DNA from: Pseudorhizobium tarimense
GTDB taxonomy: Bacteria; Pseudomonadota; Alphaproteobacteria; Rhizobiales; Rhizobiaceae
Assembly: GCF_022968135.1 (NCBI RefSeq)
Contig: NZ_JALJRA010000009.1
Coordinates: 62,001-126,000, forward strand
Direction: 5' to 3'
Length of the DNA: 64,000 bases
A model generated the notes under the pieces. It searched no databases and was not told the origin of the DNA. It was given only the letters and a program-made list of their open reading frames with translations. The stretch's first letter is position 1, and each line of letters begins with the position of its first letter. The translations under genes and the position numbers were made by a program. Positions 27,101 through 42,903 of this stretch are shown here, in pieces.

Positions 27101-27125
27101 GGAACCGCGGTCGCCTGCAGGAGTT
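27101..27125 (+). promoter_or_regulatory. EcfG/RpoE2-type promoter, GGAAC-N16-AGTT
   Basis: GGAAC at 27101-27105 and AGTT after 16 bases, 37 bases before the flavoprotein start. One base off the CGTT consensus. Confidence 0.4.
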
Positions 27126-27162
27126 AGGCGCGTTTGCCCTTGATCAACTCCGGAGGGAACGC

Positions 27163-28104
27163 ATGCCTGCCAGCAATCCGGCGGAACAAGTAGCCACGAA
27201 AGTCCCCTTTGATTGCCTCGTACTCGGTGGCGGTCCGGGCGGCATGACGGCGGCGATCTATCTGGCGCGGATGAACCGCAAGGCTCTCCTCATCGACGGC
27301 GGATGCAGCCGCGCGAGGCTCATCCCGCGATCCTATAACCATCCAGGCTTTCCCGGCGGAGTAAAAGGGCGGGATCTGCTTGGCCGTATGCGCGAGCAGA
27401 TGGCAGAGCTCGGCGTGTCCGTCGTGGACGGAGACGTCACGGGCTTGGAAAAGACGACGGACGGCTTCTTCCAGATGGACATCGACGGTCGGCCTGTCTT
27501 TGGCCAGAACGTCATCTTCGCGACGGGCCTCGAGGACAACCTCCCGCCGTTCGAAGATGCAGCGGATCTCGTTTCGTCGGGTTACCTGCGGATCTGTCCT
27601 ATCTGCGACGGTTACGAGATCGCTGGCCGGCCGGTTGCGGTGATCGGCTCGACCTTGCGGGCGGTCGCTGAAGCCCGTTTCCTGAAGACCTTCACCACCT
27701 CCATCGCCATCGTGACGCTGGGCGAGGTCCCTGGCTGGGACGAGGCCACGGATGCCGAGTTGCGAGACGAGGGCATCGCTGTCGTCGAGCAGGAGCTATT
27801 GACGCTTTCCAGAACCGAGACCGGTGAGCTCGACCTGCTGTTTGAGGACGGGAGCCGGATGAACGGCGTCGTGCTCTACACGGCGCTCGGCGTTCGCCCG
27901 AGATCGCGGATTGCGCAGCAGATCGGCGTCCGTCTCGAGGAGGACGGGCGCATCACGACGGGGCCGCACCAGGAAACGAATGTTGACGGCTGCTTCGCCG
28001 CAGGCGATGTCGTGACGGGCTTGAACCAACTGGGCGTTGCGATGGCGCATGGCGAGGTCGCTGCCGTCGCCATACATAATCGGTTGCGCAACGGAACCGG
28101 CTGA
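27163..28104 (+). CDS. Thioredoxin-reductase-like NAD(P)/FAD oxidoreductase
   Basis: A 313-aa flavoprotein of the TrxR-like family. It has an FAD-binding [16 protein letters not shown] motif (about residues 18-33), a redox-type ICPICDGYE (CxxC, about 145-153), an NADPH domain with [17 protein letters not shown], and a [25 protein letters not shown] end. The third NADPH glycine motif is altered (GSTLRA). True TrxB or a related disulfide reductase is possible; no thioredoxin gene is nearby. Confidence 0.85.
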
Positions 28105-28167
28105 CCGCTGCGGAACTCGGAAGGGGACCGATCGGTTGGGTTGCGCGAAGGAAAGGCAAGGTGGCTC

Positions 28168-28452
28168 ATGAGACATATCGCGATCATTTCCGCACTGGTG
28201 GTGGCGCTTAGCGCCTGCACCACGACCGTTGCATCCACGTCGCCGGGCCTTGAGCCCATCCCAGGCAGCATCACCTATGGAGGGCAGCCCCGCACGCGGC
28301 TGACCAAGGCTCCGATCGGCAGTCCGGTGCATCATCAGTTCCGCAACGAGTTCGGGCAGCGGGTGGAAGAGCTCTACATCATCCAGCCCGACCGCAGCCT
28401 GAAGCTGGTCTCGCGACACGTCTATCGTGGCTGGCCGTTCGGCGACGACTGA
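28168..28452 (+). CDS. Small hypothetical lipoprotein, 94 aa
   Basis: A 94-aa protein whose N-terminus MRHIAIISALVVALSAC ends in a lipobox (LSAC, Cys17). The mature part is Thr/Ser-rich, then basic, and ends SRHVYRGWPFGDD. I chose ATG 28168 over an upstream TTG because it begins the signal sequence. No known family. It ends 15 bases before a bidirectional terminator. Confidence 0.65.
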   Translation: MRHIAIISALVVALSACTTTVASTSPGLEPIPGSITYGGQPRTRLTKAPIGSPVHHQFRNEFGQRVEELYIIQPDRSLKLVSRHVYRGWPFGDD

Positions 28453-28466
28453 GCGTCTTCGCAGGA

Positions 28467-28496
28467 GAAGAAGCCCCGCCGTCACGGGGCTTCTTC
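28467..28496. terminator. Bidirectional terminator between convergent genes
   Basis: GAAGAAGCCCCG and CGGGGCTTCTTC form a perfect 12-bp stem with a 6-base loop between the lipoprotein gene and the convergent SDR gene. Confidence 0.85.
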
Positions 28497-28498
28497 AT

Positions 28499-29302
28499 TC
28501 AGTTGGCCTTGCCGCTGCCGGGTTCGGCCATCTTGCGGTGCTGTCCGGCCAGCATGCCCGCCGGCGTCACATTGGCGGCCGCCGACATGATTTTGTTCTT
28601 CCAGCCGGCAACAACATCGCCTTCACCGTCCATCATGGCCTTGAAGCCGACTTTGGCGACATAGGCCGGATCATCCTTCTTTCCTTGTCCAATCGCCGTA
28701 TCCATCAGATCGGCCCGTTCGAAGAATTCCGTGTCCGTCGGCCCTGGCATAAGGCAGGTGACGGTGATGCCCGTGTCCTTCAGTTCATCCCGAAGGGCGA
28801 GCGAGAAGCTGTTGATGAAGGCTTTGGTGCCGTTGTAGACGGCCTGAAATGCGCCGGGCATGAAGCCGGCAATCGAGCCGGTGAAAAGGATACGGCCTGA
28901 CCCGCGGGTGCGCATGCGGTTACCGATCGCATGGGCCAGATGGATGGTTCCGGTGATGTTGGTGTCCACCACACGCTGGGCATCTTCCGGATTCTCGTCG
29001 AGAAAACCGTGACCGAGGCCAACGCCGGCATTGGCCATTAGAAGATCGACGGGGCGGCCCAGGGAGGAGATGCCGTCGACGAACCGGTGCACGCCGTCTC
29101 GTGTGGCAAGGTCCACCTGCATCGCCTCGACCTGAATGCCGAATTCCTTCAGTTTCATCGCGGCTTCCTGGATGCGCGGCTCGTTTGCCGCGATTGCCAG
29201 GTCGTAACCTTCCTGGGCGGCGCATTTGGCCAGTTCATAGCCGATGCCGGTTGAGGCTCCGGTTATGACCGCCAGGCCCTTGCCTGTTTCCACCGGGTTC
29301 AT
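28499..29302 (-). CDS. Short-chain dehydrogenase/reductase
   Basis: A 267-aa classical SDR. It has the cofactor motif TGASTGIGYELAK (about residues 14-26), NAGVG (about 94), catalytic Ser in LFTGSIAG and YNGTKAF (YxxxK). I place the start at 29302 (MNPVETGKGLAVITG); the open frame upstream is not SDR-like. An EcfG-type motif sits 56-80 bases upstream, suggesting stress control. Substrate unknown. Confidence 0.88.
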   Translation of the reverse strand: MNPVETGKGLAVITGASTGIGYELAKCAAQEGYDLAIAANEPRIQEAAMKLKEFGIQVEAMQVDLATRDGVHRFVDGISSLGRPVDLLMANAGVGLGHGFLDENPEDAQRVVDTNITGTIHLAHAIGNRMRTRGSGRILFTGSIAGFMPGAFQAVYNGTKAFINSFSLALRDELKDTGITVTCLMPGPTDTEFFERADLMDTAIGQGKKDDPAYVAKVGFKAMMDGEGDVVAGWKNKIMSAAANVTPAGMLAGQHRKMAEPGSGKAN

Positions 29303-29357
29303 GGGGTTCTCCTTGTAGCTAGGACGACGCTCCGGCGCCAGTCTTGTTGCCGGACAG

Positions 29358-29382
29358 AACCAGAGGCCGGATGAAAGGTTCC
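29358..29382 (-). promoter_or_regulatory. EcfG/RpoE2-type promoter, GGAAC-N16-GGTT (minus)
   Basis: On the minus strand GGAAC (29382-29378), 16 bases, then GGTT (29361-29358), upstream of the SDR start at 29302. Confidence 0.55.
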
Positions 29383-29493
29383 TATTCCGCTGCGACGGCT
29401 CGTGTCGGGGCAGATTGACGCGCCGTGAACGGAAACCCTTGCTGAGAGAGCAGGTTCGGCAATATGGCAGGAGAAGTTTCGGAAGGACCAGAC

Positions 29494-29928
29494 ATGACAT
29501 CTGATGCGCATTGGGCTCCCTTGTCCCCCTACAGCACCGGGCTGAGGGGCCGCTGCCCGCGATGCGGGCAAGGACACCTGTTCGACGGATTCCTGAAGCT
29601 GCGGCCGAATTGCGAAGTCTGCGGCCTCGATTACTCCTTCGCCGATCCGGCGGATGGGCCGGCCTTCTTCGTCATCTGCTTCGCCTGCGTGCCCAGTGTC
29701 GCCCTTGCGGTCTGGATCGAGGTGGTCTTCCAGCCGCCGTTCTGGGTTCACCTGCTGACTTCGCTTCCCTTCATGCTGCTGACCTGCATCCCGCCACTGC
29801 GGCCGCTGAAGGGTTGGCTTGTGGCGAGCCAGTATTTCTATAAGGCGGAGCAGGGAAAGTGGGATCAGAGCGATCCTGCAAGCTCTCCACCGGCCACCAG
29901 ACAAGTTCAGCCTCAACCTGAGGAATAG
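29494..29928 (+). CDS. DUF983 membrane protein with zinc-ribbon-like N-terminus
   Basis: A 144-aa DUF983 protein. Two CxxC pairs (RCPRCGQGHLFDGFL and CEVCGLDYSFADPADGPAFF, about residues 18-60) precede two membrane spans (FVICFACVPSVALAVWIEVV and LLTSLPFMLLTCIPPL), and KGWLVASQYFYKAE follows. The ATG at 29494 has a GGAAGGA site at good spacing; an ATG ten codons upstream is possible. Function not established in the family. Confidence 0.85.
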   Translation: MTSDAHWAPLSPYSTGLRGRCPRCGQGHLFDGFLKLRPNCEVCGLDYSFADPADGPAFFVICFACVPSVALAVWIEVVFQPPFWVHLLTSLPFMLLTCIPPLRPLKGWLVASQYFYKAEQGKWDQSDPASSPPATRQVQPQPEE

Positions 29929-29982
29929 TCGGAACTTTTCTCCCGCCAAGTAATTCGTCAGGTAGCCAGCAGGGAGCCCGAC

Positions 29983-30234: not shown

Positions 30235-30250
30235 CAAACATAGTCAAAAC

Positions 30251-30284
30251 AACAAAGGGCGCGATCACCGCGCCCTTTGTTGTT
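30251..30284. terminator. Bidirectional terminator before ugd
   Basis: AACAAAGGGCGCG and CGCGCCCTTTGTT form a perfect 13-bp stem with loop ATCAC, between the 83-aa gene and the convergent ugd. Confidence 0.88.
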
Positions 30285-30304: not shown

Positions 30305-31684
30305 TCAGGCAGGTGCCGCCGCAATCTCACTCCAGTTGCCGGTTCCGGCGCCGGTGCGGCGGGCCTTGATACGCTCTACGGGAGCAGCCGCCTTGCGACC
30401 GATGCTGACATATTTCAGGCCACGTGCCGCGACGGCCTCAGGCTCAAAGAGATTGCGGCAGTCGATCACGACGCGCCCCGACATGGACTTGGCGAGCCGG
30501 TCGAGGTCCATACCCGCGTATTCGTCCCATTCCGTCAGGATCACGACCACATCCGCATCACGGGCCGCTTCATAGGGGCAATCCGCCCAGGCAGCGCCGG
30601 AGACGTGACGTTCCGTTTCATGACGGGCCTTTGGATCATGGGCGGTCACCTTGGCGCCAGCCTTCAGCAGGAGCGGCATGATCGTCAGCGCTGCGGAATC
30701 GCGCACGTCGTCGGTATTGGCCTTGAAGGCCGTCCCGAGGATCGCCACCCGGCGGCCTTTGCCGCCGAGCTCGGACAGGATGCGTTTGGCGAGGGCAGAC
30801 TTTCGCACCTCGTTGCGGTCGATCAGCGTCTCCACGATCGCCTGCGGCTGGCCGAAGCGGCGGCCAATGGCGGCAAAAGCGCGGGTATCCTTCGGGAAGC
30901 AGGAACCGCCAAAACCCGGCCCCGGGTTCAGGAACGCCCGGCCGATCCGCCGGTCGAGGCCAATGCCGTCTGCAACCGCCGCCACGTCACCGCCTGCGGC
31001 TTCGCACAAATCCGCCACTTCGTTGATGAAGCCGATCTTGAGCGCCAGGAAGGCGTTGGCGGCGTATTTGATCATCTCGGCATTGGTGGTGTTGGTCGCG
31101 ATATAGGGTATGCCCTTTTCCCGCAGCGGCGCGTAGAGCTGTTCAAGCACTTTGGCTGCCCGCGCATCGTCTGCTCCCGCGACGATGCGGTCTGCTTCCA
31201 GGAAGTCGCGGATCGCAGATCCTTCGCGGAGGAACTCCGGATTGGAGGCGACGTAGACATCGCTGCGGCCGCGGGCCTCGTGGACCAGGCGACGAACCAT
31301 CTGAGCAGTGCCCGCCACAACCGTCGACTTGATGACGACCACGGCTTCGGGCTTCAGAAGCGGTGCCAGGGAGGTTGCGGCATTCTTCACATAGGAGAGT
31401 TCTATGTCACCATCTGGACCTGACGGCGTGCCCACTGCGATGAAGACGGCGTCTGCCTTGGAGGCCGCCAGCGCTGGTTCATCCGAAAACGAAAGTCGGC
31501 CAGACTCGACATGCTTGCTGATCAGTTCGGAAAGCCCCGGCTCATAGATCGGGATTTCGGCTCGCCTCAGTCGCGCAACCTTCAGTGCATCATTGTCGAC
31601 GCAGGTGACCCGGTGCCCAAGCTCTGCGAGGCAGGCGCCCGTGGTCAATCCCACATAGCCTGCTCCGATCATCACAACATCCAT
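30305..31684 (-). CDS. ugd: UDP-glucose 6-dehydrogenase
   Basis: A 459-aa enzyme that oxidises UDP-glucose to UDP-glucuronate for surface polysaccharides. It has a Rossmann GAGYVGLTTGACLAELGH at the N-terminus, NPEFLREGSAI, and catalytic Cys in GFGGSCFPKDTRAF (about residue 260). The second nucleotide domain has ILGTAFKANTDDVRDS. The start at 31684 (MDVVMIGAGYVG) fits the family. Rhizobial homologues are called RkpK when tied to K-antigen or LPS synthesis; no polysaccharide cluster is visible here. Confidence 0.93.
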   Translation of the reverse strand: MDVVMIGAGYVGLTTGACLAELGHRVTCVDNDALKVARLRRAEIPIYEPGLSELISKHVESGRLSFSDEPALAASKADAVFIAVGTPSGPDGDIELSYVKNAATSLAPLLKPEAVVVIKSTVVAGTAQMVRRLVHEARGRSDVYVASNPEFLREGSAIRDFLEADRIVAGADDARAAKVLEQLYAPLREKGIPYIATNTTNAEMIKYAANAFLALKIGFINEVADLCEAAGGDVAAVADGIGLDRRIGRAFLNPGPGFGGSCFPKDTRAFAAIGRRFGQPQAIVETLIDRNEVRKSALAKRILSELGGKGRRVAILGTAFKANTDDVRDSAALTIMPLLLKAGAKVTAHDPKARHETERHVSGAAWADCPYEAARDADVVVILTEWDEYAGMDLDRLAKSMSGRVVIDCRNLFEPEAVAARGLKYVSIGRKAAAPVERIKARRTGAGTGNWSEIAAAPA

Positions 31685-31842
31685 GCTGTCTCTCCCTGGC
31701 ATTGTACATTCGCAAGCCGCGGTTCCAGCAGCTGCAGATGCACATGAAACACCGCCGGAGGTCGAGAGTTCCGGAAGAAGTCATTGTTGTTGAAGTTATT
31801 GATGAAGATGCGCGGGCAGCGCTACGCGATTGAGTTCACGAT

Positions 31843-31867
31843 GGAACCTAGCGCGAGGGATGGGGTT
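31843..31867 (+). promoter_or_regulatory. EcfG/RpoE2-type promoter, GGAAC-N16-GGTT
   Basis: GGAAC at 31843-31847, 16 bases, GGTT at 31864-31867, 39 bases before the SDR start. Confidence 0.55.
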
Positions 31868-31906: not shown

Positions 31907-32764
31907 ATGAGCCATTACCCCACGCCGCCTTTCCCTGAAAAGACGTTACCGATGCCCGGCCGGACCAAAGACATGGAGCCGATCCCCGATCACGGCGAAA
32001 AGAGCTATCGTGGGTCTGGCCGGTTGAACGGCCTGAAGGCCGTGATTACCGGCGGCGACAGCGGCATTGGGCGCGCGGTTGCCATTGCCTATGCCCGCGA
32101 AGGCGCGGACGTTCTGATTGCCTATCTGGAGGAAGACGAGGACGCGCAGGAAACGAAGCGGCACGTCGAAGAGGCAGGCCGCAAGGCTGTCCTGGTGCGT
32201 GGCGACATTCAGTCGGCGGAGCACTGCCGCAAGATCATTGATACCGCAGTGAGCGAGTTGGGTGGCATCGACATTCTTGTCAACAACGCGGCCCACCAGG
32301 CGACCTTCTCCTCGATCGGCGACATCTCCGATGAGGAGTGGGAGCTGACCTTCCGCGTCAACATCCACGCGATGTTCTATCTGACCAAGGCTGCCGTGCC
32401 GCACATGAAGCCGAACAGCTCGATCATCAACACAGCATCCATCAATTCGGATTCGCCGAGCCCGAGCTTGCTGGCCTATGCGACCACGAAGGGCGCGATC
32501 CAGAACTTCACCGCGGGTCTCGCTCAATTGCTGGCCGAGCAGGAGATCCGCGCGAATGCCGTTGCGCCCGGTCCGATCTGGACGCCGCTCATCCCTTCGA
32601 CGATGAAGGGGGACCGTCTGACGCAGTTCGGCAAGCAGGTGCCTATGCAGCGTCCGGGACAGCCGGCGGAACTGGCGACGGCGTATGTCATGCTGGCCGA
32701 CCCGCAGTCGAGTTACGTGTCGGGCGCGACGATCGCCGTCACCGGCGGCAAGCCCATCCTCTAA
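31907..32764 (+). CDS. YghA-like SDR family oxidoreductase
   Basis: A 285-aa SDR of the subgroup with a long N-terminal extension (PFPEKTLPMPGRTKDMEPIPD) before GLKAVITGGDSGIGRAVAI. Catalytic residues lie in NTASINSDSPSPSLLAYATTKGA (the YxxxK part is YATTK), and TGGKPIL ends the protein. This group includes E. coli YghA and Bacillus general stress proteins such as YdaD, so a stress role fits the EcfG-type promoter upstream. Substrate unknown. Confidence 0.9.
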   Translation: MSHYPTPPFPEKTLPMPGRTKDMEPIPDHGEKSYRGSGRLNGLKAVITGGDSGIGRAVAIAYAREGADVLIAYLEEDEDAQETKRHVEEAGRKAVLVRGDIQSAEHCRKIIDTAVSELGGIDILVNNAAHQATFSSIGDISDEEWELTFRVNIHAMFYLTKAAVPHMKPNSSIINTASINSDSPSPSLLAYATTKGAIQNFTAGLAQLLAEQEIRANAVAPGPIWTPLIPSTMKGDRLTQFGKQVPMQRPGQPAELATAYVMLADPQSSYVSGATIAVTGGKPIL

Positions 32765-32774
32765 CGCTCTGCTG

Positions 32775-32809
32775 AAGGCGCGGCTTAATGATCAGGCCGC
32801 GCCTTTATC
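32775..32809. terminator. Bidirectional terminator between SDR and P450 genes
   Basis: AAGGCGCGGC and GCCGCGCCTT form a perfect 10-bp stem whose loop contains the stop codon of the convergent P450 gene. A T-rich tail follows on the plus side. Confidence 0.75.
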
Positions 32810-34053
32810 TCTTCAATCACGAAGCCGCTGTCGGGGAGGGCGGGGACGCGGTTCATCTCCACCGATAGATCCTGTGGCGGCACGGTATAGTGCATGCTCT
32901 CCATCAGCAGCCTGACTGATTGCTTCAGCAGTTCGACGGTGATCGTTTCGCCGGGGCAGCGGTGGGTGACGGCTGCCTGTCCCGCACCCTGCGGAATGAA
33001 CTCATAGTCCTGGTCGCGCCAGGATATGGCGCGGTCGGTACGGAAGCGGTCCGGCTCTGGAAACAGGTCGGGGGCGTGCGTCGTGCCGTAGAGGTCTAGG
33101 AGGAGCCACTGTCCCTTCGGCAGCAGGTGACCGTGCCAGCTAATCTCTTCTTTCACTCTTGCGCCGACGAACGGAAAGAAGGGGCTCTTGCGCCGAACCT
33201 CTTCGGCGAAGGCTTCCAATTGCTGGTCGTCTTTTAGGTCTGCTGTCTGCTCCGGTTGCTCGTGCAATTGCAGAGCGGCAAAGACGATGAAGCGCCCCAC
33301 TGCGACCACCGGCCGGAGTATGTTGATAAGCTCGACGGCCGCTTCCTCCACCGTCAGAGGCTTGCCATCCATGTCGACGAAGGTTGCAACACGGTGCAGA
33401 GGAATTTCGGGCTCCAGCGGGAGGGCGCCCGAACGGACCTGTTGAACCAGCTCCCGGGACCACCGTTCGGTACGCCTTCGCCGCCAAAGCGCGGCCACAG
33501 TCGCGGGACGGAAATGTCCGGCGTGCTCCACCATCCCGGCCAGTTCAGTTGTCATCTCTGCATCATCGCGGACCGGCACACCCGTCCATCGGCAGACAGC
33601 CCGCGTCAGGATCAGGTTGACCTCGTCGATCAGAACGACCCGCTCCTGCGCTTCCCAGGACGCCAGACGGGCGAGCCACTCCTCGCGAAAGATGTTTGCA
33701 AGCCGCTCCACCTGGCCTGGCGCCATGAGGATGGAGATGAAGAGGCCCTTGCGATGGCGATGCTGGTCCCCATCCAGCTGCTGAACGCTCCCCTTGTCCT
33801 GCAACAGCCGCAGGACGGTCTGCGGCATGGACTGCTGGCGCGTGAGCGGCGCCTGGCCATAGAAGAGTTCGGCCGCCTGCGGTCCCTGCATGCAGATCAC
33901 GTCGGTCAGCGTGAGCCGGGTCCGGAAGATGTCCGTGCCGAGGCGCCGGCAACGATTGGGAATGAAGTGGTAGCCCTCGCGCAGCAGCGAAAGCGTCGCG
34001 TCCCAGGCGCCGTCACTGGGAATGGCGGGTGAAGATGAAGCATTCTCGGACAT
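32785..34053 (-). CDS. Cytochrome P450 of the CYP152 peroxygenase type
   Basis: A 422-aa P450. The haem Cys is about residue 366 in THRCPGETITVE. The I helix reads NILRPVVAVGRFIVF: it lacks the usual acid-alcohol pair and carries Arg-Pro, the hallmark of CYP152 fatty-acid hydroxylases/decarboxylases that use hydrogen peroxide instead of a reductase. RKSPFFPFVGARV (the K-helix region) agrees. It is last in an apparent operon after ndh and the 94-aa gene, 9 bases after the latter. Substrate, probably a fatty acid, is inferred from the subfamily. Confidence 0.88.
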   Translation of the reverse strand: MSENASSSPAIPSDGAWDATLSLLREGYHFIPNRCRRLGTDIFRTRLTLTDVICMQGPQAAELFYGQAPLTRQQSMPQTVLRLLQDKGSVQQLDGDQHRHRKGLFISILMAPGQVERLANIFREEWLARLASWEAQERVVLIDEVNLILTRAVCRWTGVPVRDDAEMTTELAGMVEHAGHFRPATVAALWRRRRTERWSRELVQQVRSGALPLEPEIPLHRVATFVDMDGKPLTVEEAAVELINILRPVVAVGRFIVFAALQLHEQPEQTADLKDDQQLEAFAEEVRRKSPFFPFVGARVKEEISWHGHLLPKGQWLLLDLYGTTHAPDLFPEPDRFRTDRAISWRDQDYEFIPQGAGQAAVTHRCPGETITVELLKQSVRLLMESMHYTVPPQDLSVEMNRVPALPDSGFVIEEIKARPDH

Positions 34054-34062: not shown

Positions 34063-34347
34063 TCAGGTGCGCCGGCCGACCTCGCGGGCAAGGTCTTCGA
34101 AGTCGAAGGCCTCTCCACGTTCGGAGGCTTCGTTTGCCAGGAGCAGGATGCGGATCGGGAAGGCGACGGCCTTCTGGTGCGACTGCGAAACGGCAAGCGG
34201 CTGGCTGTCATCCAAAACCGTCTGCTCCGCTTCCTGCAACACCGTCTGCAGTTCCGAGCTGGTCACGACCCCCTTGCTGACGAGCAGGCGGTTGATGGCG
34301 GCCAAGGCGAGGTAGAGGCCTTCCAGTTGTGGGTTTGCGGTATTCAT
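34063..34347 (-). CDS. 94-aa hypothetical protein between ndh and P450
   Basis: A 94-aa soluble protein (MNTANPQLEGLYLALAAINR.. ending EDLAREVGRRT), probably all-helical. Its ATG overlaps the ndh stop codon (ATGA at 34344-34347), so translation is coupled, and the P450 start lies 9 bases past its stop. I recognise no family. The tight packing suggests it acts with either ndh or the P450. Confidence 0.8.
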   Translation of the reverse strand: MNTANPQLEGLYLALAAINRLLVSKGVVTSSELQTVLQEAEQTVLDDSQPLAVSQSHQKAVAFPIRILLLANEASERGEAFDFEDLAREVGRRT

Positions 34348-35690
34348 GTTTCTCTCCTCTCGGTCGATGCCGGCACCTCGATCCCCGCATTCTCGTCGAT
34401 CAGGCGGGCGCCCCGCTGGCGAGTGGCGTAGCGCCAGATCCACTGGATGCTGACGAGCAGGCGTTTTTCGAAGTTCACGAGCAGATAGACGTGCACGATC
34501 GCCCATAGGAACCAGGCGAGCCGGCCCTTCATCTTCCACGTGCCGAAATCGAAGATCGCCGCGTTGCGGCCGATCACGGCGGTGTTTCCGCGGTCGTGGA
34601 AGCGGAAAGGCTGCGGTTGGCGTCCCTCCAGAAGCTTTGTCCTCAGCGCTGCTCCAAGATACTCGCCCTGCTGCTTTGCGACCTGGGCGAGCGCGGCGAG
34701 CGGTTTTCCCTCCTCGCCCATGCCAAGCGCCGTATCGCCAACAGCATAGATATTGCTCATCCCGGTGACGGCGAGATCGGGATCGACTGGAATGCGGCCA
34801 CCGGCTTTGCCTTCGATCCCCAGCCAACTGGCGGCCGGTGAGGCTTTCACGCCCGCGCCCCAAATGATGCATCCGGTGCGAAACGTCTGGCCGCCCGCAA
34901 TCACCTCTTCCTTTGAGATCTTCTCGACCGGAGTGTTGGTCAGAACCTGCACGCCCGCCTTCTCCAGCGAGCGCTCGGCATACTGCGCCAGATCGTCGGG
35001 GAAGGCCGCGAGAATGCGTGGCGCGGCTTCGATGAGAATGACCCGGAAATGTTCGGGCGCCAAATCGCGGAAGTCACGGGTGATCATGAAGTGGCCGAGC
35101 TCGGCGATCGCGCCCGCCATCTCGACGCCTGTGGGGCCACCGCCGATGACGATGCTGGTCAGCAGCGCCCGCTTCTCTTCCGGATCCCGCGTCTGTTCAG
35201 CTTTCTCGAACGCGAGCAGCAGGCGCTGGCGGATCAGGCGCGCTTCGTGGATCGTCTTCAAGCCCGGTGCATGAGCGCGCCAGTCGTCATGGCCGAAGTA
35301 GTTGTATTCCGATCCCGTGGCGATGACGAGCTTGTTGTAGGCAATGGGCTCGCCTTCGGAAAGATGCACCACCTTGGCAGCCGGATCGACGCCGACCACC
35401 TCGGCAAGCGCCACCTTTATGTTGCGGTAGCGACCGAGGGTGCGCCTGATCGGTTCCGAGATATCTGCAGGTGAAAGGGCGGCGGTGGCAACCTGGTAAA
35501 GGAGCGGCTGGAAGAGGTTGTGGTTGCGCCGGTCAACGACGGTGACGTCAATTTCGGTGTTGCCGAGCTCTCTGGCACAGGCGAGGCCGGCAAAGCCCGC
35601 GCCGACGATCACGACGTGCGGACGACCAGCCAGTGATCCAGTTGTTGTCGTTCCTTCTTCGACCATGTCTCCCCGCGCTTCTGCGGCCAT
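34344..35690 (-). CDS. ndh: Type II NADH dehydrogenase (NDH-2)
   Basis: A 448-aa flavoprotein that oxidises NADH with quinone without pumping protons. It has the FAD motif VGAGFAGLACARELG (about residues 28-42), NLFQPLLYQVATAALSP, NADH motif IVIGGGPTGVEMAGAIAELG and YAVGDTA. The C-terminal membrane-binding region (LAWFLWAIVHVYLLVNFEKRL) fits the family. An ATG eight codons in is an alternative start. It leads the ndh - 94-aa - P450 operon. A weak EcfG-type motif lies upstream. Confidence 0.9.
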   Translation of the reverse strand: MAAEARGDMVEEGTTTTGSLAGRPHVVIVGAGFAGLACARELGNTEIDVTVVDRRNHNLFQPLLYQVATAALSPADISEPIRRTLGRYRNIKVALAEVVGVDPAAKVVHLSEGEPIAYNKLVIATGSEYNYFGHDDWRAHAPGLKTIHEARLIRQRLLLAFEKAEQTRDPEEKRALLTSIVIGGGPTGVEMAGAIAELGHFMITRDFRDLAPEHFRVILIEAAPRILAAFPDDLAQYAERSLEKAGVQVLTNTPVEKISKEEVIAGGQTFRTGCIIWGAGVKASPAASWLGIEGKAGGRIPVDPDLAVTGMSNIYAVGDTALGMGEEGKPLAALAQVAKQQGEYLGAALRTKLLEGRQPQPFRFHDRGNTAVIGRNAAIFDFGTWKMKGRLAWFLWAIVHVYLLVNFEKRLLVSIQWIWRYATRQRGARLIDENAGIEVPASTERRET

Positions 35691-35712: not shown

Positions 35713-35737
35713 AACACGAGCTTTGGGCAAATGTTCC
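35713..35737 (-). promoter_or_regulatory. EcfG-like promoter, GGAAC-N16-TGTT (minus), ndh
   Basis: On the minus strand GGAAC (35737-35733), 16 bases, TGTT (35716-35713). One mismatch to CGTT. It faces ndh and is back-to-back with the plus-strand element at 35754. Confidence 0.4.
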
Positions 35738-35753: not shown

Positions 35754-35778
35754 GGAACCTTTTTGCGGTGGCCCCGTT
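35754..35778 (+). promoter_or_regulatory. Consensus EcfG/RpoE2 promoter, GGAAC-N16-CGTT
   Basis: GGAAC (35754-35758), 16 bases, CGTT (35775-35778): an exact consensus match. It lies 30 bases before the first 24-aa membrane peptide gene. Confidence 0.65.
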
Positions 35779-35807: not shown

Positions 35808-35882
35808 ATGTACAGCATCGTCTGGTTGGTCGGCGCAATCGTCATCGTGATCGCCATCCTGAACCTTATCGGCATTGCTTGA
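35808..35882 (+). CDS. 24-aa single-span membrane peptide, copy 1
   Basis: A 24-codon gene, MYSIVWLVGAIVIVIAILNL plus IGIA. It has a strong ACAGGAGAG ribosome site and is almost entirely one hydrophobic helix. It resembles the next gene over its whole length (xSIxWLVGAxVIVxAIL). Short proteins of this type, often MNSIIWLVGAVVIVLAILSF, recur in alphaproteobacteria as far as I recall, with no known function. A consensus stress promoter lies 30 bases upstream, which strongly supports expression. Confidence 0.72.
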   Translation: MYSIVWLVGAIVIVIAILNLIGIA

Positions 35883-35917: not shown

Positions 35918-35992
35918 ATGAACAGCATCATATGGCTCGTCGGAGCGGTTGTTATCGTTCTTGCCATTCTGTCTTTTCTCGGCCTCGGCTGA
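35918..35992 (+). CDS. 24-aa single-span membrane peptide, copy 2
   Basis: A 24-codon gene, MNSIIWLVGAVVIVLAILSF plus LGLG. Its AAAGGAGAGG ribosome site is 36 bases after copy 1, so both share a transcript, and a terminator follows at once. The paralogy to copy 1 shows a tandem duplication retained at the protein level (same length, same WLVGA core). Function unknown; membrane insertion is inferred from hydrophobicity. Confidence 0.72.
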   Translation: MNSIIWLVGAVVIVLAILSFLGLG

Positions 35993-36017: not shown

Positions 36018-36060
36018 AAGAAAGGCCGCTGATCATGATGATGAGCGGCCTTCTTCTTTA
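36018..36060. terminator. Terminator after the membrane-peptide pair and after treY
   Basis: AAGAAAGGCCGCT pairs with AGCGGCCTTCTT (one bulged A) around a 13-base loop. T-rich sequence lies on the plus side and treY converges from the other. Confidence 0.8.
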
Positions 36061-36068: not shown

Positions 36069-38599
36069 TCACTGAGAGACCAGCAGAGCAAAAGGATGAC
36101 CCGCAAAGCACCAGTTCACCGACAGGCTGCCCTTCGGCTGGTATTCCCGGCCCGTGAAGATGTCTTTGTAGCTTCGTCCAGCCAGCGTGTCCGGCAGGTC
36201 GATGTCTGTCTCCGCCCAATGTATGGAGGTGTAGTGCCCGTGCCGGAATGCGCCGAAGACGAGCCGGGGCGCGATCAGGATCATTGCGTTGTCCCCGCTC
36301 TGCCTTGCACAGCTGATGATATTGGGTGCCCGCTTTCCTTTGATGTCCAAGGGAAGGTAGTTGCCGGCGGAGAATAACGCGGGCTCCTTTTGGCGCAGGT
36401 TCAAGACCTTCGAGATGACGTTCTGCTTTAGGCGGCCGCTATGCCAGTCCGCTTCTTCCGATGGCAGCTGCGGCCCGTCAGCCAGCCCCTTCCCCAGAAG
36501 CGCGAAGTCGGGCGGGCGGCGGTTGTCGGGATCGACCAGACTGAGATCGAGACGCTCGCTGCCCTGGTAGATGTCGGGTACACCCGGTGCCGTGAGCTTG
36601 ATCAAGGTCTGCGTTATGCCGTTGACCAGCCCGGTACGGACAAACGGGGTGATGGTGTTGGTGAAGTCGGAGAGGAACTCCCTGTTGTCGGGGGCGAGAA
36701 GTGCGGCGGCATAGGCCTTCACCGCGCCTTCGTATTCCTCATTTGTGTCGTTCCAGCTCGTCCGCTGTTTTGCCTCGCGGAGAGCCTTTTCGACGAAGGC
36801 GAGAAACCGCTCTTCCAGTGCCTTCAGCCCAGCCGCATCCTCGGCTGCCAGATCCGCCGGCCAGGCACCGAGGAGAGCCTGGTAGAGCATCCATTCCACC
36901 GCCGGCTCGGGTGCGGGTCCATCGGCGAGCAAAGCGACGTTGGCGCGGTTCATCGCGCGCCAGCGGGTTACCGCCTCGGCCCAGACATCCGGCGCCTCGC
37001 TCAGGGTGTAGAGGCGAGCCCGCGCATCTTCTCCCCGCTTGGTGTCATGCGTCGATGTGCCCGACAAAGCATGCGGCTGACGCTGCAGACGCGTCTGCAT
37101 TTCCTGGTGGAAATGCTCCAATGACGCCGGGTGCGGCTCCGCCTCGCTGCCGACTTCGTTCAGGGCGATGAAGCGGTGGTGGCGGAAGAAGAGCGTGTCC
37201 TCCAGCGACTTGGCCATCAGCGGGCCGGTGAGCTGCTGGAAGCGCATCCGGAAAAGCGATGCCACGTCTGCTTGTTCGGTCGCCACCTCCCCAAGCAAGA
37301 TTCGCTGAATGAACTGGAGCGCTTCCCGACCAGGCGCGTGCGGTCCTTGCTCCACCGACCGAACCACTTCGGCCAGCCGCTCGCGGCCTTCGTTCGGCAT
37401 GCCGTCAGCCGTGCCGTAGGTGCGGTAGACGGGGAAGGCGACAAGAAGTTCGCGTAGTGCGTTGTGCAGGTCATGATCCGATATCGAGTCTGATGCCTCT
37501 CCTGCATCGCGCAGTCGGACTGCCAGCTTTCTCAGGGCGGCAACCTCGCCTTCGAAGTTGTTATTCGCCATCAGGAGCTTCGCCTGACGCAGTTCCTCCA
37601 GCGGGCGGCCCGGTTGTCCCGTGACAGCCTCATAGGCATCCGTCAACGCATCCGACTTGCTGCCGTCGACTAGGGCGTCGCTGAGGGCGCCGATGAACTC
37701 ATAGCCGGTGGTGCCGGAGATCGGCCAGTCGGCGGGGATCTGCTCGCCCTCACCGAGGATCTTCTCCACGACGATATAGGTCTCGGGCCCAACCTCCTTG
37801 CGAAGCCGGTCGAGATAGTCCTTCGGATCGGCCAGCCCATCCACGTGATCGATCCGCAGCCCATCCACCCGTCCGTCCCGTACGAGCTCTAGGACCGTCC
37901 GGTGCGCGGCGTCGAACACCTCCGGATCTTCGACGCGCAGGCCGACGAGGCCCGTGATCTCGAAAAAACGGCGGTAGCTGAGTTCGCGCGGAGCATCGCG
38001 CCACGACATCAGCCGCCAAGGCTGGCGGTCGTGAAGGTCGGCAATCTCTTCCGGCTTTCTGAGAGAGAGCACCTCTTCCTCTCGTCCCTCGTAGCTAGAG
38101 GGTTTGAGCGGGTAGTCGGTCTCGTAGTAGGTAAGGGATGGCTTGCCCGTCTTCGGATCCCGTTGGATCGAGAGTTCGCCGTTGGAGAGAACCGTGTCGA
38201 AGGTGTCGCCGAGAAAGGGCAGAGTGAGGCGGCGGCTCCAGTCGATGTCGAAGTAGTGGGCGAACCGGCTTTCCTCGCCATGCTCGACGACGTCATACCA
38301 CCAGGGGTTTTCGAGCGACGCCGCCATGTGGTTCGGCACGATATCGAGGATCAGGCCCAGCTCATTCTCCTGCAATGCGCGCGACAGCCGGTCGAACCCT
38401 TCGCGGCCGCCCAGCGTCGGGTCCAGTTCATTTGCATCGGTGACGTCGTAGCCATGGGTGGAGCCGCTCGTCGCCGTGAAGATCGGCGAGGCGTAGAGGT
38501 GGCTGATTCCGAGCCGCTTCAGATAGGGAACGAGGGCTGCTGCCCCGTCGAAGGTCATGCCGTTGCGGAACTGAATGCGATAGGTGGAGGAGGGGATGA

Positions 38600-38603
<4 letters not shown>
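36069..38603 (-). CDS. treY: Maltooligosyl trehalose synthase TreY
   Basis: An 844-aa GH13 enzyme that converts the reducing end of malto-oligosaccharides to a trehalosyl unit by transglycosylation. It has the N-terminal STYRIQFRNGMTFDGAAALV, then HLYASPIF, LILDIVPNHMA, GLRIDHVDGLADPKDYLDRL (nucleophile Asp), the catalytic Glu in YIVVEKILGEGE, and GTSTHDTKRGEDARAR. It overlaps the treZ stop by 4 bases (ATGA). With TreZ it makes trehalose from glycogen-type glucans. Confidence 0.95.
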
Positions 38604-40426
<1,823 letters not shown>

Positions 40427-40455
40427 GGATCTACCCCCTGATGCGGAGACGGTCA

Positions 40456-40480
40456 AACGGACGAAGCTGAAGCTTGTTCC
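40456..40480 (-). promoter_or_regulatory. Consensus EcfG/RpoE2 promoter, GGAAC-N16-CGTT (minus), treZY
   Basis: On the minus strand GGAAC (40480-40476), 16 bases, CGTT (40459-40456): an exact match placed for treZ. Confidence 0.65.
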
Positions 40481-40569
40481 AGAGCCTGATTGGCCAGCTC
40501 TAAAGGGTAACGCCGCCGATCGAGGTCAGCCGCAGGATTGCAGTTTCGCCTCAAGGCTCTGTTCAATAA

Positions 40570-40601
40570 CAAAGCGGCCGCACCAGGTCTGGCGCGGCCG
40601 A
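40570..40601 (-). terminator. Terminator after the 47-aa gene
   Basis: CGGCCGC and GCGGCCG form a 7-bp stem; on the minus strand TTTGTTATT follows. It isolates the 47-aa gene from treZ. Confidence 0.6.
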
Positions 40602-40624
40602 TATCGCAAATAGGTATGGAAGCC

Positions 40625-40768
40625 TCAGCGGCCCGCATCGTCCTTCTTGTCCTTGACCTCCCGGCCATTTTCCTTGGCCTTCTTGTCGTCGCGGGCAAGC
40701 TCGTGCTCGACGACATCGCGCGAGCCTTCGGCCGGTTCCTGTTCGAGATGCGATCCGTTCTGCGTCAT
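40625..40768 (-). CDS. 47-aa highly charged small protein
   Basis: A 48-codon frame (MTQNGSHLEQEPAEGSRDVV.. ending KDKKDDAGR). It lacks Trp, Phe, Tyr and Cys and is very rich in Glu, Asp and Lys. An AAGGAGAAAG site precedes the ATG. An EcfG-type promoter is 26-50 bases upstream and a terminator 24 bases downstream, so it looks like a complete single-gene unit. Hydrophilin-like stress protein is an inference from composition; no family recognised. Confidence 0.72.
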   Translation of the reverse strand: MTQNGSHLEQEPAEGSRDVVEHELARDDKKAKENGREVKDKKDDAGR

Positions 40769-40793
40769 GTACTTTCTCCTTGCTCAAAGATCG

Positions 40794-40818
40794 AACCGCG
40801 ACGGGACGGATAGGTTCC
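40794..40818 (-). promoter_or_regulatory. EcfG/RpoE2-type promoter, GGAAC-N16-GGTT (minus)
   Basis: On the minus strand GGAAC (40818-40814), 16 bases, GGTT (40797-40794), in the gap between the phosphoesterase gene and the 47-aa gene. Confidence 0.55.
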
Positions 40819-40822
40819 TCAG

Positions 40823-41587
40823 TTACAGGTCGAGCAAGGCGTAGGGCTTGCCCGTCGGCTTTTCGATATGGGATGCGACATTGTAGACGGGCGCGCCGCC
40901 CGGTGTGCGGCCTTCATAGGTGCCGCGATGGGCGTGACCATGAACCACGGCGGTTACTGGAAAGCGGTCGATCGTTTCTGCCAGGCGGGACGAGCCAAGG
41001 AAGGGAAAGATCTCTGGAGGTTCGCCTGCGACGGTCTCAACGATCGGCGCGTAATGGAGCACGACCATTGCCCGCTCGGAGCGAACCTGCCGAAGCGCGT
41101 TTTCCAGCCGCATCGTCTCCTCAACGCTTTCGGCGACCATCGCCTTGATCGCAGGTTCGCCGAAGGAGCCCAGCATGTAGCGTCCGAAACCGCCGGCAAA
41201 CCCTTTTACCCCTGCAAAGCCGACGCCGTTGATCTCGACCGCCTGACCTTCCAGGATCTGGACGCCCGCGCCCTTGACGATGTCCTTGACCTCATCGACA
41301 TGGCCGCATTCATAGTCGTGGTTGCCAAGGACGGCGACCACGGGGATGGAGCAGGACCTGAGATCGTCGGCCAGCAATTCCGCTTCCTTCGGCTTGCCGA
41401 GGTCGGTCAGATCGCCGGTGAGCACGAGGATGTCGGCCTCCTGCGAGATTTCGGCGAAGAGATCCTTGTAGGACGCTGACCCTGTTTCCTTCACATGCAG
41501 GTCGCCCATGGCCGCGACCCGCTGCAGGCCCTTGGGCTTCTTCGTTTCGCTCTTGGCGTTGCCTTTCACGGATGCGGATTTGCCCAA
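40823..41587 (-). CDS. Calcineurin-like metallophosphoesterase
   Basis: A 254-aa metallophosphoesterase with a lysine/serine-rich N-terminal tail. The metal-ligand series is AAMGDLHV (about residue 28), LVLTGDLTDLG, VLGNHDYECGH, VVLHYAP and VVHGHAHRGT. Its first 22 bases overlap the end of the nucleotidyltransferase gene, implying coupled expression. Substrate not determinable; the class hydrolyses phosphomono- or diesters and nucleotides. Confidence 0.88.
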   Translation of the reverse strand: MGKSASVKGNAKSETKKPKGLQRVAAMGDLHVKETGSASYKDLFAEISQEADILVLTGDLTDLGKPKEAELLADDLRSCSIPVVAVLGNHDYECGHVDEVKDIVKGAGVQILEGQAVEINGVGFAGVKGFAGGFGRYMLGSFGEPAIKAMVAESVEETMRLENALRQVRSERAMVVLHYAPIVETVAGEPPEIFPFLGSSRLAETIDRFPVTAVVHGHAHRGTYEGRTPGGAPVYNVASHIEKPTGKPYALLDL

Positions 41588-42438
41588 GCCGAGCCTCCTT
41601 CTGCTGTTTCCTCTCTTTCACGGAGTTCGCCTTCGCCTCCGACATCGGCGAAGCCCCATTCCTTCACGTCGATCTCGAAGTCGACACGGCTGAACATGCG
41701 TCCGCGGCAGATCTTCATCTGCGGAAGCGGCAACTGGCGCTGCGCCTGCAGCCGGTCGAGGAGTTCGTCGAGCAGCCAGTCGGGGACCTTGTCGCGCTCG
41801 GTTGGGTAGATCCAGCGGAAGTTAAGGAGGTGGATCAGCAGCACCTCCCAGTGCACTTCCATGTGGTTGAGCAGGCGCTGCCAGTCGATCTGGTCATGTG
41901 CGCGCAGGATCACGTGGACGACGTCGCCGCCGTCATAGCGATGGCGCAACTGGACGAAGCATTTCGACCAGATCAGCTCAGTGGGCGCAATGATGCGAAC
42001 CGGATGGCCGTTCAGCGGCATCTGGCGCGCGTTGTCGAACCAGGCGTCGCCGATCGGCATGGTGCCGTTGGAGCCAGCAAAGATGACGTCAAAGAAATGG
42101 TTGCCGCGGATGACCTTGCCAAGCCAGCGATCATCCTCCACCGCGATCTGGTAGCCGCGCTGCTTGAAGTGGGCGAGAATGCGGGCATAGTCGCCGGCGC
42201 GGCAGAAGATGTCGAGATCCTTGGTCGGCCGCGTGATGCCGGTATAGGCGCTGACCGCATAGGTGCCGGCCAGCAGGAAGGGGATGCCGCAGGCGGCTAG
42301 TTCATCCAGCGCCTCCTGCACGAAGGCTTCGGCTTCGGCATCGACCAGCGTAGGTGATGCCTTGGCTTCCATCTGCGGCATCATTTCCATCTGATCGCGC
42401 GCAGGCTTTTCGGCAGGCGGTAAGAACTCGGCTTCCAT
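41566..42438 (-). CDS. Nucleotidyltransferase-fold protein
   Basis: A 290-aa protein. Its core has GIPFLLAGTYAVSAYTGITRPTKDLDIF (about residues 50-78; short forms AGTYAVSAYTG and KDLDIF), the pattern of the AbiEii/MNT-like nucleotidyltransferase superfamily with paired acidic residues in KDLDIF. A later part reads APTELIWSKCFVQLRHRYDGGDV. Such proteins can be toxins or housekeeping enzymes; no antitoxin-like partner is seen. It is coupled to the downstream metallophosphoesterase, and a weak EcfG-type motif lies upstream. Confidence 0.82.
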   Translation of the reverse strand: MEAEFLPPAEKPARDQMEMMPQMEAKASPTLVDAEAEAFVQEALDELAACGIPFLLAGTYAVSAYTGITRPTKDLDIFCRAGDYARILAHFKQRGYQIAVEDDRWLGKVIRGNHFFDVIFAGSNGTMPIGDAWFDNARQMPLNGHPVRIIAPTELIWSKCFVQLRHRYDGGDVVHVILRAHDQIDWQRLLNHMEVHWEVLLIHLLNFRWIYPTERDKVPDWLLDELLDRLQAQRQLPLPQMKICRGRMFSRVDFEIDVKEWGFADVGGEGELREREETAEGGSAWANPHP

Positions 42439-42462
42439 ATGTGTCTCCAGTATAGGCGGGTG

Positions 42463-42488
42463 AACACCTCCGGCCTTCCGCGGGTTCC
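42463..42488 (-). promoter_or_regulatory. Weak EcfG-type promoter, GGAAC-N17-TGTT (minus)
   Basis: On the minus strand GGAAC (42488-42484), 17 bases, TGTT (42466-42463), 25 bases before the nucleotidyltransferase start. One base off the consensus. Confidence 0.3.
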
Positions 42489-42498
42489 GCCAAAACGA

Positions 42499-42528
42499 TG
42501 ATCGGCCCCCGGGGGCGGGAGCCGATCA
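42499..42528 (-). terminator. Terminator after the 86-aa gene
   Basis: TGATCGGC and GCCGATCA form a perfect 8-bp stem with a G/C loop; on the minus strand TCGTTTTGG follows. Confidence 0.65.
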
Positions 42529-42549
42529 GGTGCCGAGGGAAGGCGGCGT

Positions 42550-42810
42550 TCAGCGCTCCGGATTGTCCGCATTGGCCAGCGCGCTGATGCTGCCGTCGTT
42601 GTTCTCGACGTCTTCGCGCTCATCCACGTCTTCGAGATCAGGCTTCACCAGATACGTATCTCCGCCGCCGAGGCGCGAAGCTTCCTTCACCGCGTCCTGA
42701 TTCGTCATGTCGGTCTGGGCGTGCAGCGCATCCTCGGAGCGCTCTCGGCCTTCGCGTTCAAAGCGGGCGGAGGCGTTCGAATTATCCGCGACCTTGTCCT
42801 TGGCATCCAT
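42550..42810 (-). CDS. 86-aa acidic hydrophilic protein
   Basis: An 86-aa protein (MDAKDKVADNSNASARFERE.. ending SALANADNPER) that is rich in Asp, Glu, Asn and Ala and has no Cys or Trp. The ATG at 42810 has a GAAAGGACATC leader. It is divergent from the DUF3008 gene, and each side has an EcfG-type promoter. Composition and promoter suggest a stress-induced disordered protein; no family recognised. Confidence 0.75.
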   Translation of the reverse strand: MDAKDKVADNSNASARFEREGRERSEDALHAQTDMTNQDAVKEASRLGGGDTYLVKPDLEDVDEREDVENNDGSISALANADNPER

Positions 42811-42842
42811 GATGATGTCCTTTCGTTCATGTCTGGCTGTCC

Positions 42843-42867
42843 AACCGCATGGCCGCGACTTGGTTCC
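42843..42867 (-). promoter_or_regulatory. EcfG/RpoE2-type promoter, GGAAC-N16-GGTT (minus)
   Basis: On the minus strand GGAAC (42867-42863), 16 bases, GGTT (42846-42843), 33 bases before the 86-aa gene start. Confidence 0.55.
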
Positions 42868-42878
42868 CGATCGCCGCG

Positions 42879-42903
42879 GGAACCAACGAACCGGTAACCG
42901 GTT
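42879..42903 (+). promoter_or_regulatory. EcfG/RpoE2-type promoter, GGAAC-N16-GGTT
   Basis: GGAAC (42879-42883), 16 bases, GGTT (42900-42903), 32 bases before the DUF3008 gene. It mirrors the minus-strand copy 11 bases away. Confidence 0.55.

What the first reader, a model, noticed from the sequence alone, without database searches (positions are those of the whole stretch)
27101..42903. A cluster of EcfG/RpoE2 general-stress promoters
I find GGAAC-N16-NGTT upstream of genes at 27101 (AGTT), 29382 minus (GGTT), 31843 (GGTT), 35737 minus (TGTT), 35754 (CGTT), 40480 minus (CGTT), 40818 minus (GGTT), 42867 minus (GGTT) and 42879 (GGTT). There is one more at 18840, and N17 variants at 42488 minus and 23724-23751. 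With equal base use, GGAAC-N16-NGTT is expected about twice in 64 kb on both strands; these ten all sit in upstream gaps in the right orientation. The targets (treZY, SDRs, a TrxR-like flavoprotein, small hydrophilic proteins, two 24-aa peptides) form a coherent stress set. GGAAC-N18-TT is the known S. meliloti RpoE2 motif.
Basis: partly seen in the sequence, partly recalled or inferred. Interest (0 to 1): 0.78.

Follow-up and report, generated by a model that had tools for sequence, protein, structure and literature searches.

The report
Stress-promoter cluster with membrane microproteins
A 16-kb stretch of a soil bacterium's genome carries an unusually dense, conserved set of general-stress gene switches of a known type, and one of them drives two 24-amino-acid, probably membrane-bound proteins of a family that recurs in many related bacteria.

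Summary
All 10 precede a gene in the right orientation. In 11 related loci, 74 of 76 orthologues of the motif-bearing genes keep the motif, against 1 of 55 orthologues of neighbours without one. The genome has a phyR-nepR-rpoE2 locus. These are very probably EcfG/RpoE2 general-stress promoters, a known kind; transcription was not measured.

Less expected are the two 24-codon ORFs at 35808 and 35918. They belong to a conserved hydrophobic microprotein family found in 49 of 121 genomes sampled from the window's family and 32 of 385 from its class (own genome counted in both). The window's two subfamilies evolve under strong purifying selection (median dN/dS 0.03 and 0.07). The copies tested have no Pfam match and no NCBIfam match over cut-off. 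Of 63 copies read, 43 have an exact EcfG-type site within 260 bases; 12 of the other 20 have a one-mismatch site (1.3 expected). In 17 of 63 loci a membrane-protein-like gene follows a copy directly. Their function is inferred.

The parts
27101..27125 (+). EcfG-type promoter (N16, AGTT) of the TrxR-like flavoprotein
   Evidence: no orthologue in the flanks of the relatives, so not footprinted
27163..28104 (+). thioredoxin-reductase-like flavoprotein (Pyr_redox_2)
   Evidence: below the TIGR01292 cut-off
28112..28137 (+).
   Evidence: motif in 8 of 9 orthologues
28168..28452 (+). 94-aa ORF, lipoprotein-like by eye
   Evidence: no Pfam
28499..29302 (-). short-chain dehydrogenase
29358..29382 (-). 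EcfG-type promoter (N16, GGTT) of the 28499 SDR
   Evidence: 2 of 2 orthologues
30305..31684 (-). UDP-glucose 6-dehydrogenase-type enzyme
   Evidence: TIGR03026 over cut-off
31748..31772 (-).
   Evidence: 2 of 2
31843..31867 (+). EcfG-type promoter (N16, GGTT)
   Evidence: 9 of 9
31907..32764 (+). SDR oxidoreductase
34344..35666 (-). type II NADH dehydrogenase-like flavoprotein
   Evidence: Pyr_redox_2; NDH2_C just over cut-off
35713..35737 (-). EcfG-type promoter (N16, TGTT) of the NDH-2-like gene
   Evidence: 9 of 9
35754..35778 (+). EcfG-type promoter (N16, CGTT) of the microprotein pair, back to back with 35713 (16 bases between the -35 elements; 14-15 in 10 of 11 relatives, no such pair seen in L040)
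   Evidence: 10 of 10 rows
35808..35882 (+). microprotein A, 24 aa
   Evidence: median dN/dS 0.03 over 77 locus pairs
35918..35992 (+). microprotein B, 24 aa
   Evidence: median dN/dS 0.07 over 63 locus pairs
36018..36055 (+). hairpin, probable terminator between the microprotein pair and the end of treY
   Evidence: -22.9 kcal/mol, z -5.06; the scan listed no terminator here
36069..38603 (-). treY
   Evidence: TIGR02401 over cut-off
38600..40426 (-). treZ
   Evidence: TIGR02402 over cut-off
40456..40480 (-). EcfG-type promoter (N16, CGTT) of treZY
   Evidence: 11 of 11 at -28 to -32
40625..40768 (-). 47-aa hydrophilic protein
   Evidence: no Pfam
40794..40818 (-). EcfG-type promoter (N16, GGTT)
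   Evidence: 2 of 2
41566..42438 (-). nucleotidyltransferase-like protein, ahead of a calcineurin-like phosphoesterase (40823-41587)
42463..42488 (-). EcfG-type promoter (N17, TGTT)
   Evidence: 8 of 9
42550..42810 (-). 86-aa hydrophilic protein
   Evidence: no Pfam
42843..42867 (-). EcfG-type promoter (N16, GGTT)
   Evidence: 7 of 7
42879..42903 (+). EcfG-type promoter (N16, GGTT), back to back with 42843 (11 bases between the -35 elements)
   Evidence: 6 of 6
42936..43121 (+). DUF3008 protein
   Evidence: PF11450
18840..18864 (+). outlying N16 site 111 bases upstream of a Tim44-domain protein (18976-19974)
   Evidence: no orthologue to test
23726..23751 (-). outlying N17 site upstream of a YetF-like protein (23217-23714); a second N17 site overlaps it on the + strand (23724-23749)
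   Evidence: no orthologue to test

Best explanation
The block is a cluster of promoters read by the alphaproteobacterial general-stress sigma factor EcfG (RpoE2). Inferred chain, from established knowledge: stress activates PhyR, PhyR binds the anti-sigma factor NepR, RpoE2 is released and takes RNA polymerase to GGAAC-N16/17-NGTT. Shown here: 10 exact N16 and 2 N17 sites upstream of the block's genes, most of them conserved in relatives, and the regulator locus elsewhere in the genome. The targets look protective: trehalose from alpha-glucan (TreY/TreZ), redox enzymes, small hydrophilic proteins, and one short operon (promoter 35754, microproteins A and B, hairpin at 36018-36055) for two 24-residue hydrophobic peptides. 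These belong to a conserved alphaproteobacterial microprotein family whose copies mostly have EcfG-type promoters (43 of 63 exact). Inferred: under stress the peptides enter the inner membrane and act there by contact with other membrane proteins or by changing membrane state, as E. coli YohP does; the membrane-protein-like gene directly downstream in 17 of 63 loci points to a partner in some lineages.
For: 12 sites against 1.3. 234 N16 against 113 N15 and 183 reversed, whole genome. Densest 15.8 kb, null maximum 8. In the 831,717 own bases held, 45 of 82 N16 and 16 of 31 N17 sites are upstream in the right orientation, against 20 of 293 at the 16 other spacings from N8 to N25. 74 of 76 against 1 of 55 orthologues. 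PhyR, NepR and RpoE2 ORFs at C20. Motifs ahead of phyR, Ku, topoisomerase IB and a sigma-70-type factor. Literature: EcfG-dependent trehalose cluster, Ku and topoisomerase IB in Sphingomonas melonis (passages); GGAACN16-17cgTT promoter active with rpoE2 in strain NT-26 work (passages). Microproteins.
Against: No expression data. By raw count N17 (31) does not exceed N10 (32) in the stretches held; it stands out only by placement. 20 of 63 microprotein copies lack the exact motif and 8 of these also a one-mismatch site; the copy in the genome behind L059 has none although NepR is there. NepR was not found in 7 of 39 microprotein-bearing genomes tested, 4 of which nevertheless have the motif ahead of the copy. 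Sites 27101, 23726 and 18840 could not be footprinted. That the peptides act in the membrane is untested.
Confidence: 0.92

Rival explanations
1. The sites are promoters, but for another ECF sigma factor, such as the EcfG-like one at C2:201261 or that at C11:145423, alone or sharing the sites with RpoE2.
For: Two further EcfG-like genes exist (42% and 38% identity); the one at C2 itself has N16 and N17 sites upstream.
Against: The motif is that published for RpoE2 and lies ahead of phyR too; but paralogues can share it, so sequence alone cannot decide.
Confidence: 0.15
2. The sites are chance matches favoured by composition.
For: The genome has 113 such word pairs at the neighbouring spacing N15, so about half of the 234 N16 sites could be chance.
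Against: In the block: 10 sites where 0.4-0.8 are expected, upstream placement, and conservation.
Confidence: 0.02
3. The 24-codon ORFs are not translated: the promoter makes a small regulatory RNA.
For: Short transcript with a hairpin end; S. meliloti has 23 sRNAs with predicted sigma-E2 promoters (passages).
Against: Differences fall mainly at third codon positions, dN/dS 0.03 and 0.07; an SD-like 4-mer precedes 53 of 63 copies; exactly 24 codons in 30 of 30 family and 26 of 29 class copies. A double role is not excluded.
Confidence: 0.05
4. The microproteins are membrane-damaging toxins, as of type I toxin-antitoxin modules, rather than protective proteins.
For: Small and hydrophobic with one predicted helix; the YohP paper notes shared features of such proteins and membrane toxins (introduction). 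39 of 63 copies have K, R or H in the last two residues.
Against: Tandem copies under a stress sigma factor, conserved over many families. Antisense RNAs were not searched for beyond Rfam, which gave only a tRNA in 22-46 kb.
Confidence: 0.1

Closest known systems
EcfG/RpoE2 general stress regulon of Alphaproteobacteria (S. meliloti, Rhizobium sp. NT-26, Sphingomonas melonis, Bradyrhizobium diazoefficiens)
   Same: Promoter words and spacing, PhyR-NepR-EcfG locus, trehalose, Ku, topoisomerase IB and sigma-factor targets
   Different: Ten N16 sites within 16 kb, largely kept in related loci. I saw no paper describing such a cluster in paper searches (listings and abstract starts) or in the passages; that is a narrow search
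E. coli YohP, a 27-residue stress-related membrane protein (PMC12719787; abstract and introduction read)
   Same: Size, a single hydrophobic stretch, link to stress; YohP dimerises by a glycine motif, and G9 and G22 are invariant in the 22 rows of alignment A2 (one row composed by me)
   Different: No sequence relationship was tested; different sigma factor; a tandem pair here; a membrane-protein-like gene directly downstream in 17 of 63 loci
S. meliloti SEP6 (PMC10117765; passages read)
   Same: Under 30 residues, predicted transmembrane helix, translated, sORF conserved in Hyphomicrobiales
   Different: Its sequence was not open to me, so membership is undecided; the main text does not contain the word RpoE2

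Membership tests
EcfG/RpoE2 promoters | GGAAC -35, 16-17 base spacer, NGTT -10 | tested here: met
EcfG/RpoE2 promoters | position upstream of genes in the right orientation | tested here: met
   10 of 10 N16 sites of the block
EcfG/RpoE2 promoters | cognate PhyR, NepR and EcfG in the genome | tested here: met
   NepR by Pfam; PhyR and RpoE2 read from the ORFs beside it; EcfG-like paralogues
EcfG/RpoE2 promoters | conservation across relatives | tested here: met
   74 of 76 against 1 of 55; four genes could not be tested
EcfG/RpoE2 promoters | stress-induced, RpoE2-dependent transcription | not testable with these tools
   needs RNA data
Stress-induced small membrane proteins (YohP-like in action) | under 50 residues with one hydrophobic stretch | tested here: met
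   the sequences; no topology program was run
Stress-induced small membrane proteins (YohP-like in action) | translated | tested here: inconclusive
   coding signature and SD-like sequences only
Stress-induced small membrane proteins (YohP-like in action) | membrane location and effect on membrane state | not testable with these tools
   needs fractionation and potential measurements
A Pfam or NCBIfam family for the 24-aa peptides | match over a curated cut-off | tested here: not met
   Pfam: two peptides, no match. NCBIfam: four peptides, best 14.9 bits against a cut-off of 33

The most novel reading that the evidence does not exclude
A 24-residue membrane microprotein that I found undescribed is a widespread direct output of the alphaproteobacterial general stress response: a functional counterpart of YohP under a different sigma factor, working in some lineages with a membrane protein of about 300 residues encoded directly downstream. 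It is easily overlooked: the gene tables of the 3 annotated plasmid records in which I read the ORF do not list it (those tables are incomplete).
Probability: 0.55. Interest if true: 0.72.

Novelty: new member of a known kind. Interest (0 to 1): 0.56.

Why it matters
The cluster gives a compact, conserved readout of the general stress response, near a strain (NT-26) in which an RpoE2 promoter has been shown to work. The microprotein family, if confirmed, adds a conserved stress output whose role can be tested by deleting one or two very short ORFs, and bears on what single-helix microproteins do for stressed bacteria, which the YohP paper calls poorly understood (abstract).

Tried and rejected
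Chance and composition: rejected for the block by shuffles, other spacings and conservation. By raw count in the stretches held, N17 (31) is no higher than N10 (32), so its reality rests on placement (16 of 31 upstream against 3 of 32).

Faulty control: the 22 stretches that labels 'unselected' were picked with the site list in view and hold 2 N16 sites where the genome average predicts about 21. They are no N16 background and are not used as one. The stretches were partly chosen because they hold N16 sites, so N16 totals in the stretches held are inflated; whole-genome counts are not.

C47, first suspected of being noise, was fetched: 9 N16 sites in 32 kb, of which 4 upstream, 4 intergenic otherwise and 1 in a CDS, with DUF892-like and manganese-catalase-like targets by eye.

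Tblastn of the peptide against plasmids gave nothing, probably through the low-complexity filter (not tested). DNA search gave 5 records; 4 were opened. All 4 contain the ORF: two with an N16 site (Agrobacterium sp. MA01; Rhizobium sp. T1473; my first pattern had missed this ORF) and two without an exact site in 260 bases (Phyllobacterium zundukense, Neorhizobium galegae HAMBI 540). S. meliloti pSymA and pSymB and two other plasmids gave no match; the S. meliloti chromosome was not searched. Of the 35 TreZ loci, the 24 outside the 11 Rhizobiaceae showed no such peptide pair within their flanks (one unrelated pattern match in L048). The downstream membrane protein was not found in the window's genome (one query), so it is not a general partner. 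The 31907 SDR has relatives on Rhizobium plasmids; the two regions opened lack the rest of the cluster. N17 was not counted genome-wide. Overlapping sites on both strands (for example 23724-23751) were not pursued.
Full report
Setting. The window is bases 62001-126000 of contig C50 of a 4.86-Mb genome in 50 contigs. Its TreZ is 82-83% identical to those of 'Rhizobium halophilum' and Pseudorhizobium pelagicum, so I take the organism to be a Rhizobiaceae near Pseudorhizobium (inferred).

The observation. GGAAC-N16-NGTT occurs 12 times in the window, against 1.30 (sd 1.27, largest 5) in 100 dinucleotide shuffles; 10 of the 12 lie in 27101-42903. Genome-wide there are 234 N16 sites, against 113 with a spacer one base shorter and 183 for the reversed pattern. 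I had places for 225 of the 234. Among them the block is the densest 15.8 kb, with 10; 2000 uniform placements never exceeded 8. Next come C2:189-203 kb (9) and C47:73-87 kb (8).

Placement. With a simple coding-model gene caller, 9 of the 10 N16 sites of the block are upstream of a gene in the right orientation; the tenth, 35754, precedes a 24-codon ORF below the caller's size floor. Both N17 sites of the block are upstream. N12-N15 and N18-N21 have one hit in the block, inside a CDS. Over all own sequence held (831,717 bases, partly chosen for N16 sites), 45 of 82 N16 and 16 of 31 N17 sites are upstream, against 20 of 293 at the 16 other spacings from N8 to N25. By raw count alone N17 (31) is no higher than N10 (32).

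Conservation. For 22 window genes I took the best tblastn match (at least 35% identity and 40% coverage, no reciprocal test) in 11 related loci (L032-L040, L057, L060) and read 260 bases upstream (recounted). The 11 motif-bearing genes with matches keep an exact N16 or N17 motif in 74 of 76 cases; the 7 genes without a motif that have matches show one in 1 of 55 (L039, where the NDH-2-like gene was not matched and the site next to its place now precedes its neighbour). Six control spacings together gave 2 hits in the 131 cases. TreZ has it in 11 of 11, at -28 to -32. Four genes (27163, 23217, 24275, 18976) had no match in the flanks. Most 'pepA' rows aligned to the second peptide copy, so the distance shown is longer but the promoter is the same. 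The 11 loci are related, so cases are not independent. Over 13 loci (window, the 11, L087) the microprotein promoter keeps GGAACCTTTT in 12 and CCGTTCA in 13 while the inner spacer varies.

Regulators and other targets. NepR is at C20:12431, with ORFs that I read as PhyR and RpoE2 beside it. Two more EcfG-like genes lie at C2:201261 and C11:145423. Elsewhere motif sites precede phyR, a sigma-70-type factor (rpoH-like by my reading), Ku, topoisomerase IB, DUF892 proteins and a PLD-domain protein. Ku, topoisomerase IB and a trehalose cluster with both malto-oligosyltrehalose enzymes are among EcfG-dependent genes of Sphingomonas melonis (passages of PMC6599016). In Rhizobium sp. NT-26 an RpoE2 promoter of this form was mapped, and needed rpoE2 to work in E. 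coli (passages of PMC6011840); that NT-26 belongs to Pseudorhizobium is recalled.

Gene content. Family searches give treY and treZ over cut-off, a UDP-glucose dehydrogenase-type enzyme, two SDRs, a TrxR-like and an NDH-2-like flavoprotein, a CYP152-like P450 (under that model's cut-off) and DUF3008. The -35 elements of the divergent pair 35713/35754 are 16 bases apart; the pair is present with 14-15 bases in 10 of the 11 relatives and was not seen in L040.

The microproteins. The ORFs at 35808 and 35918 encode 24-residue hydrophobic peptides with SD sequences. Both are next to treY in 10 of the 11 Rhizobiaceae loci and one is in L039; the other 24 TreZ loci, mostly Enterobacterales and Rhodobacterales, have none in their flanks. 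Differences fall mainly at third codon positions (A, 13 loci: 548 of 680 pairwise differences; B, 12 loci: 465 of 619); median dN/dS is 0.03 over 77 of 78 pairs and 0.07 over 63 of 66 pairs. A hairpin at 36018-36055 (-22.9 kcal/mol, z -5.06) closes the unit. A profile finds the family in 49 of 121 genomes sampled from the window's family and a broader profile in 32 of 385 sampled from its class, own genome included in both. From the loci returned I read 30 copies in 28 of 29 family loci (own excluded; L097 gave none) and 29 copies in 29 class loci. An exact N16 or N17 site lies within 260 bases in 22 of 30 and 18 of 29; the other 12 spacings from N10 to N23 give 4 and 2 in all. With the own pair and two further loci (L153 no site, L155 one) the tally is 43 of 63; of the 20 left, 12 have a one-mismatch site within 140 bases, 1.32 expected from mononucleotide shuffles. 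An SD-like 4-mer precedes 53 of 63. NepR (E up to 0.001) was found in 32 of 39 microprotein-bearing genomes tested, 30 of them over Pfam's cut-off, and in 4 of 20 without (Fisher p 8e-6). The 20 are simply those listed, include very small genomes, and so confound size with absence. Four of the 7 NepR-negative genomes (G438, G500, G458, G215) still have the motif ahead of the copy.

Context. In 17 of 63 loci a gene of one sequence cluster (mostly 273-331 residues, hydrophobic stretches by eye) follows a copy: 16 start 77-171 bases after the start of the best copy, and in L104 it lies behind the second copy. The one member given to Pfam had no match. Holin-X-like and DUF3618-like genes recur in 9 loci each. 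The window's genome has no match to one such partner. Two peptides had no Pfam match and four no NCBIfam match over cut-off. Five sequence fragments occur in no paper of the library, which does not cover supplements or papers outside it. Three annotated plasmid records that contain the ORF list no gene there (the plasmid gene tables are incomplete). S. meliloti SEP6 may be a member.

How it most likely works. Shown: sites, placement, conservation, regulators, coding signature. Inferred: RpoE2 reads the sites when stress frees it from NepR; trehalose, redox enzymes and small proteins protect the cell; the microproteins go to the inner membrane. Their action is modelled on YohP, whose production lowers membrane potential and fluidity and whose absence lowers survival under stress (abstract, section titles and introduction of PMC12719787). 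The analogy is of size, hydrophobicity and stress regulation; descent was not tested.

Verdict. The new element is the microprotein family.

Noticed in passing
G000:C2:137001-205717 (L067-L070): A second, longer stretch rich in EcfG-type sites with Ku, an EcfG-like sigma factor, a PQQ dehydrogenase, topoisomerase IB, PLD and DUF892 genes; it runs up to near the contig end.
   Followed up: partly
G000:C47:66001-98000 (L159, L160): A third cluster with 9 N16 sites, DUF892-like and manganese-catalase-like targets by eye.
   Followed up: partly
G000:C9, both ends of a 91158-base contig: The same site sequences appear mirrored at both ends (1682/89453, 3574/87561, 5642/85493), suggesting a terminal inverted duplication of at least about 4 kb, or an assembly artefact.
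   Followed up: no
window 38600-40426: TreZ is 59-67% identical to TreZ of Enterobacterales, Cronobacter plasmids included, closer than to the listed Rhodobacterales (55-57%); possible gene transfer.
   Followed up: no
window 32785-34053: CYP152-like P450 (under the CypC cut-off), without a motif in two of two orthologues.
   Followed up: no
L107, L110, L114, L115, L116 and others: In several genomes the microprotein lies near Holin-X (PF07332) and DUF3618-like genes, in some near a BrkB-like gene.
   Followed up: no
L153 (genome behind L059): A microprotein copy with a strong profile score but no EcfG-type site, although NepR is present.
   Followed up: partly
L181 (Phyllobacterium zundukense plasmid), before 3001: A further small hydrophobic ORF lies just upstream of the microprotein, and an HWE histidine kinase, a response regulator, a 'general stress protein' and a CsbD gene are near.
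   Followed up: no
window 23098-23171: A tRNA gene on the + strand, the only Rfam match at gathering threshold in 22-46 kb.
   Followed up: no
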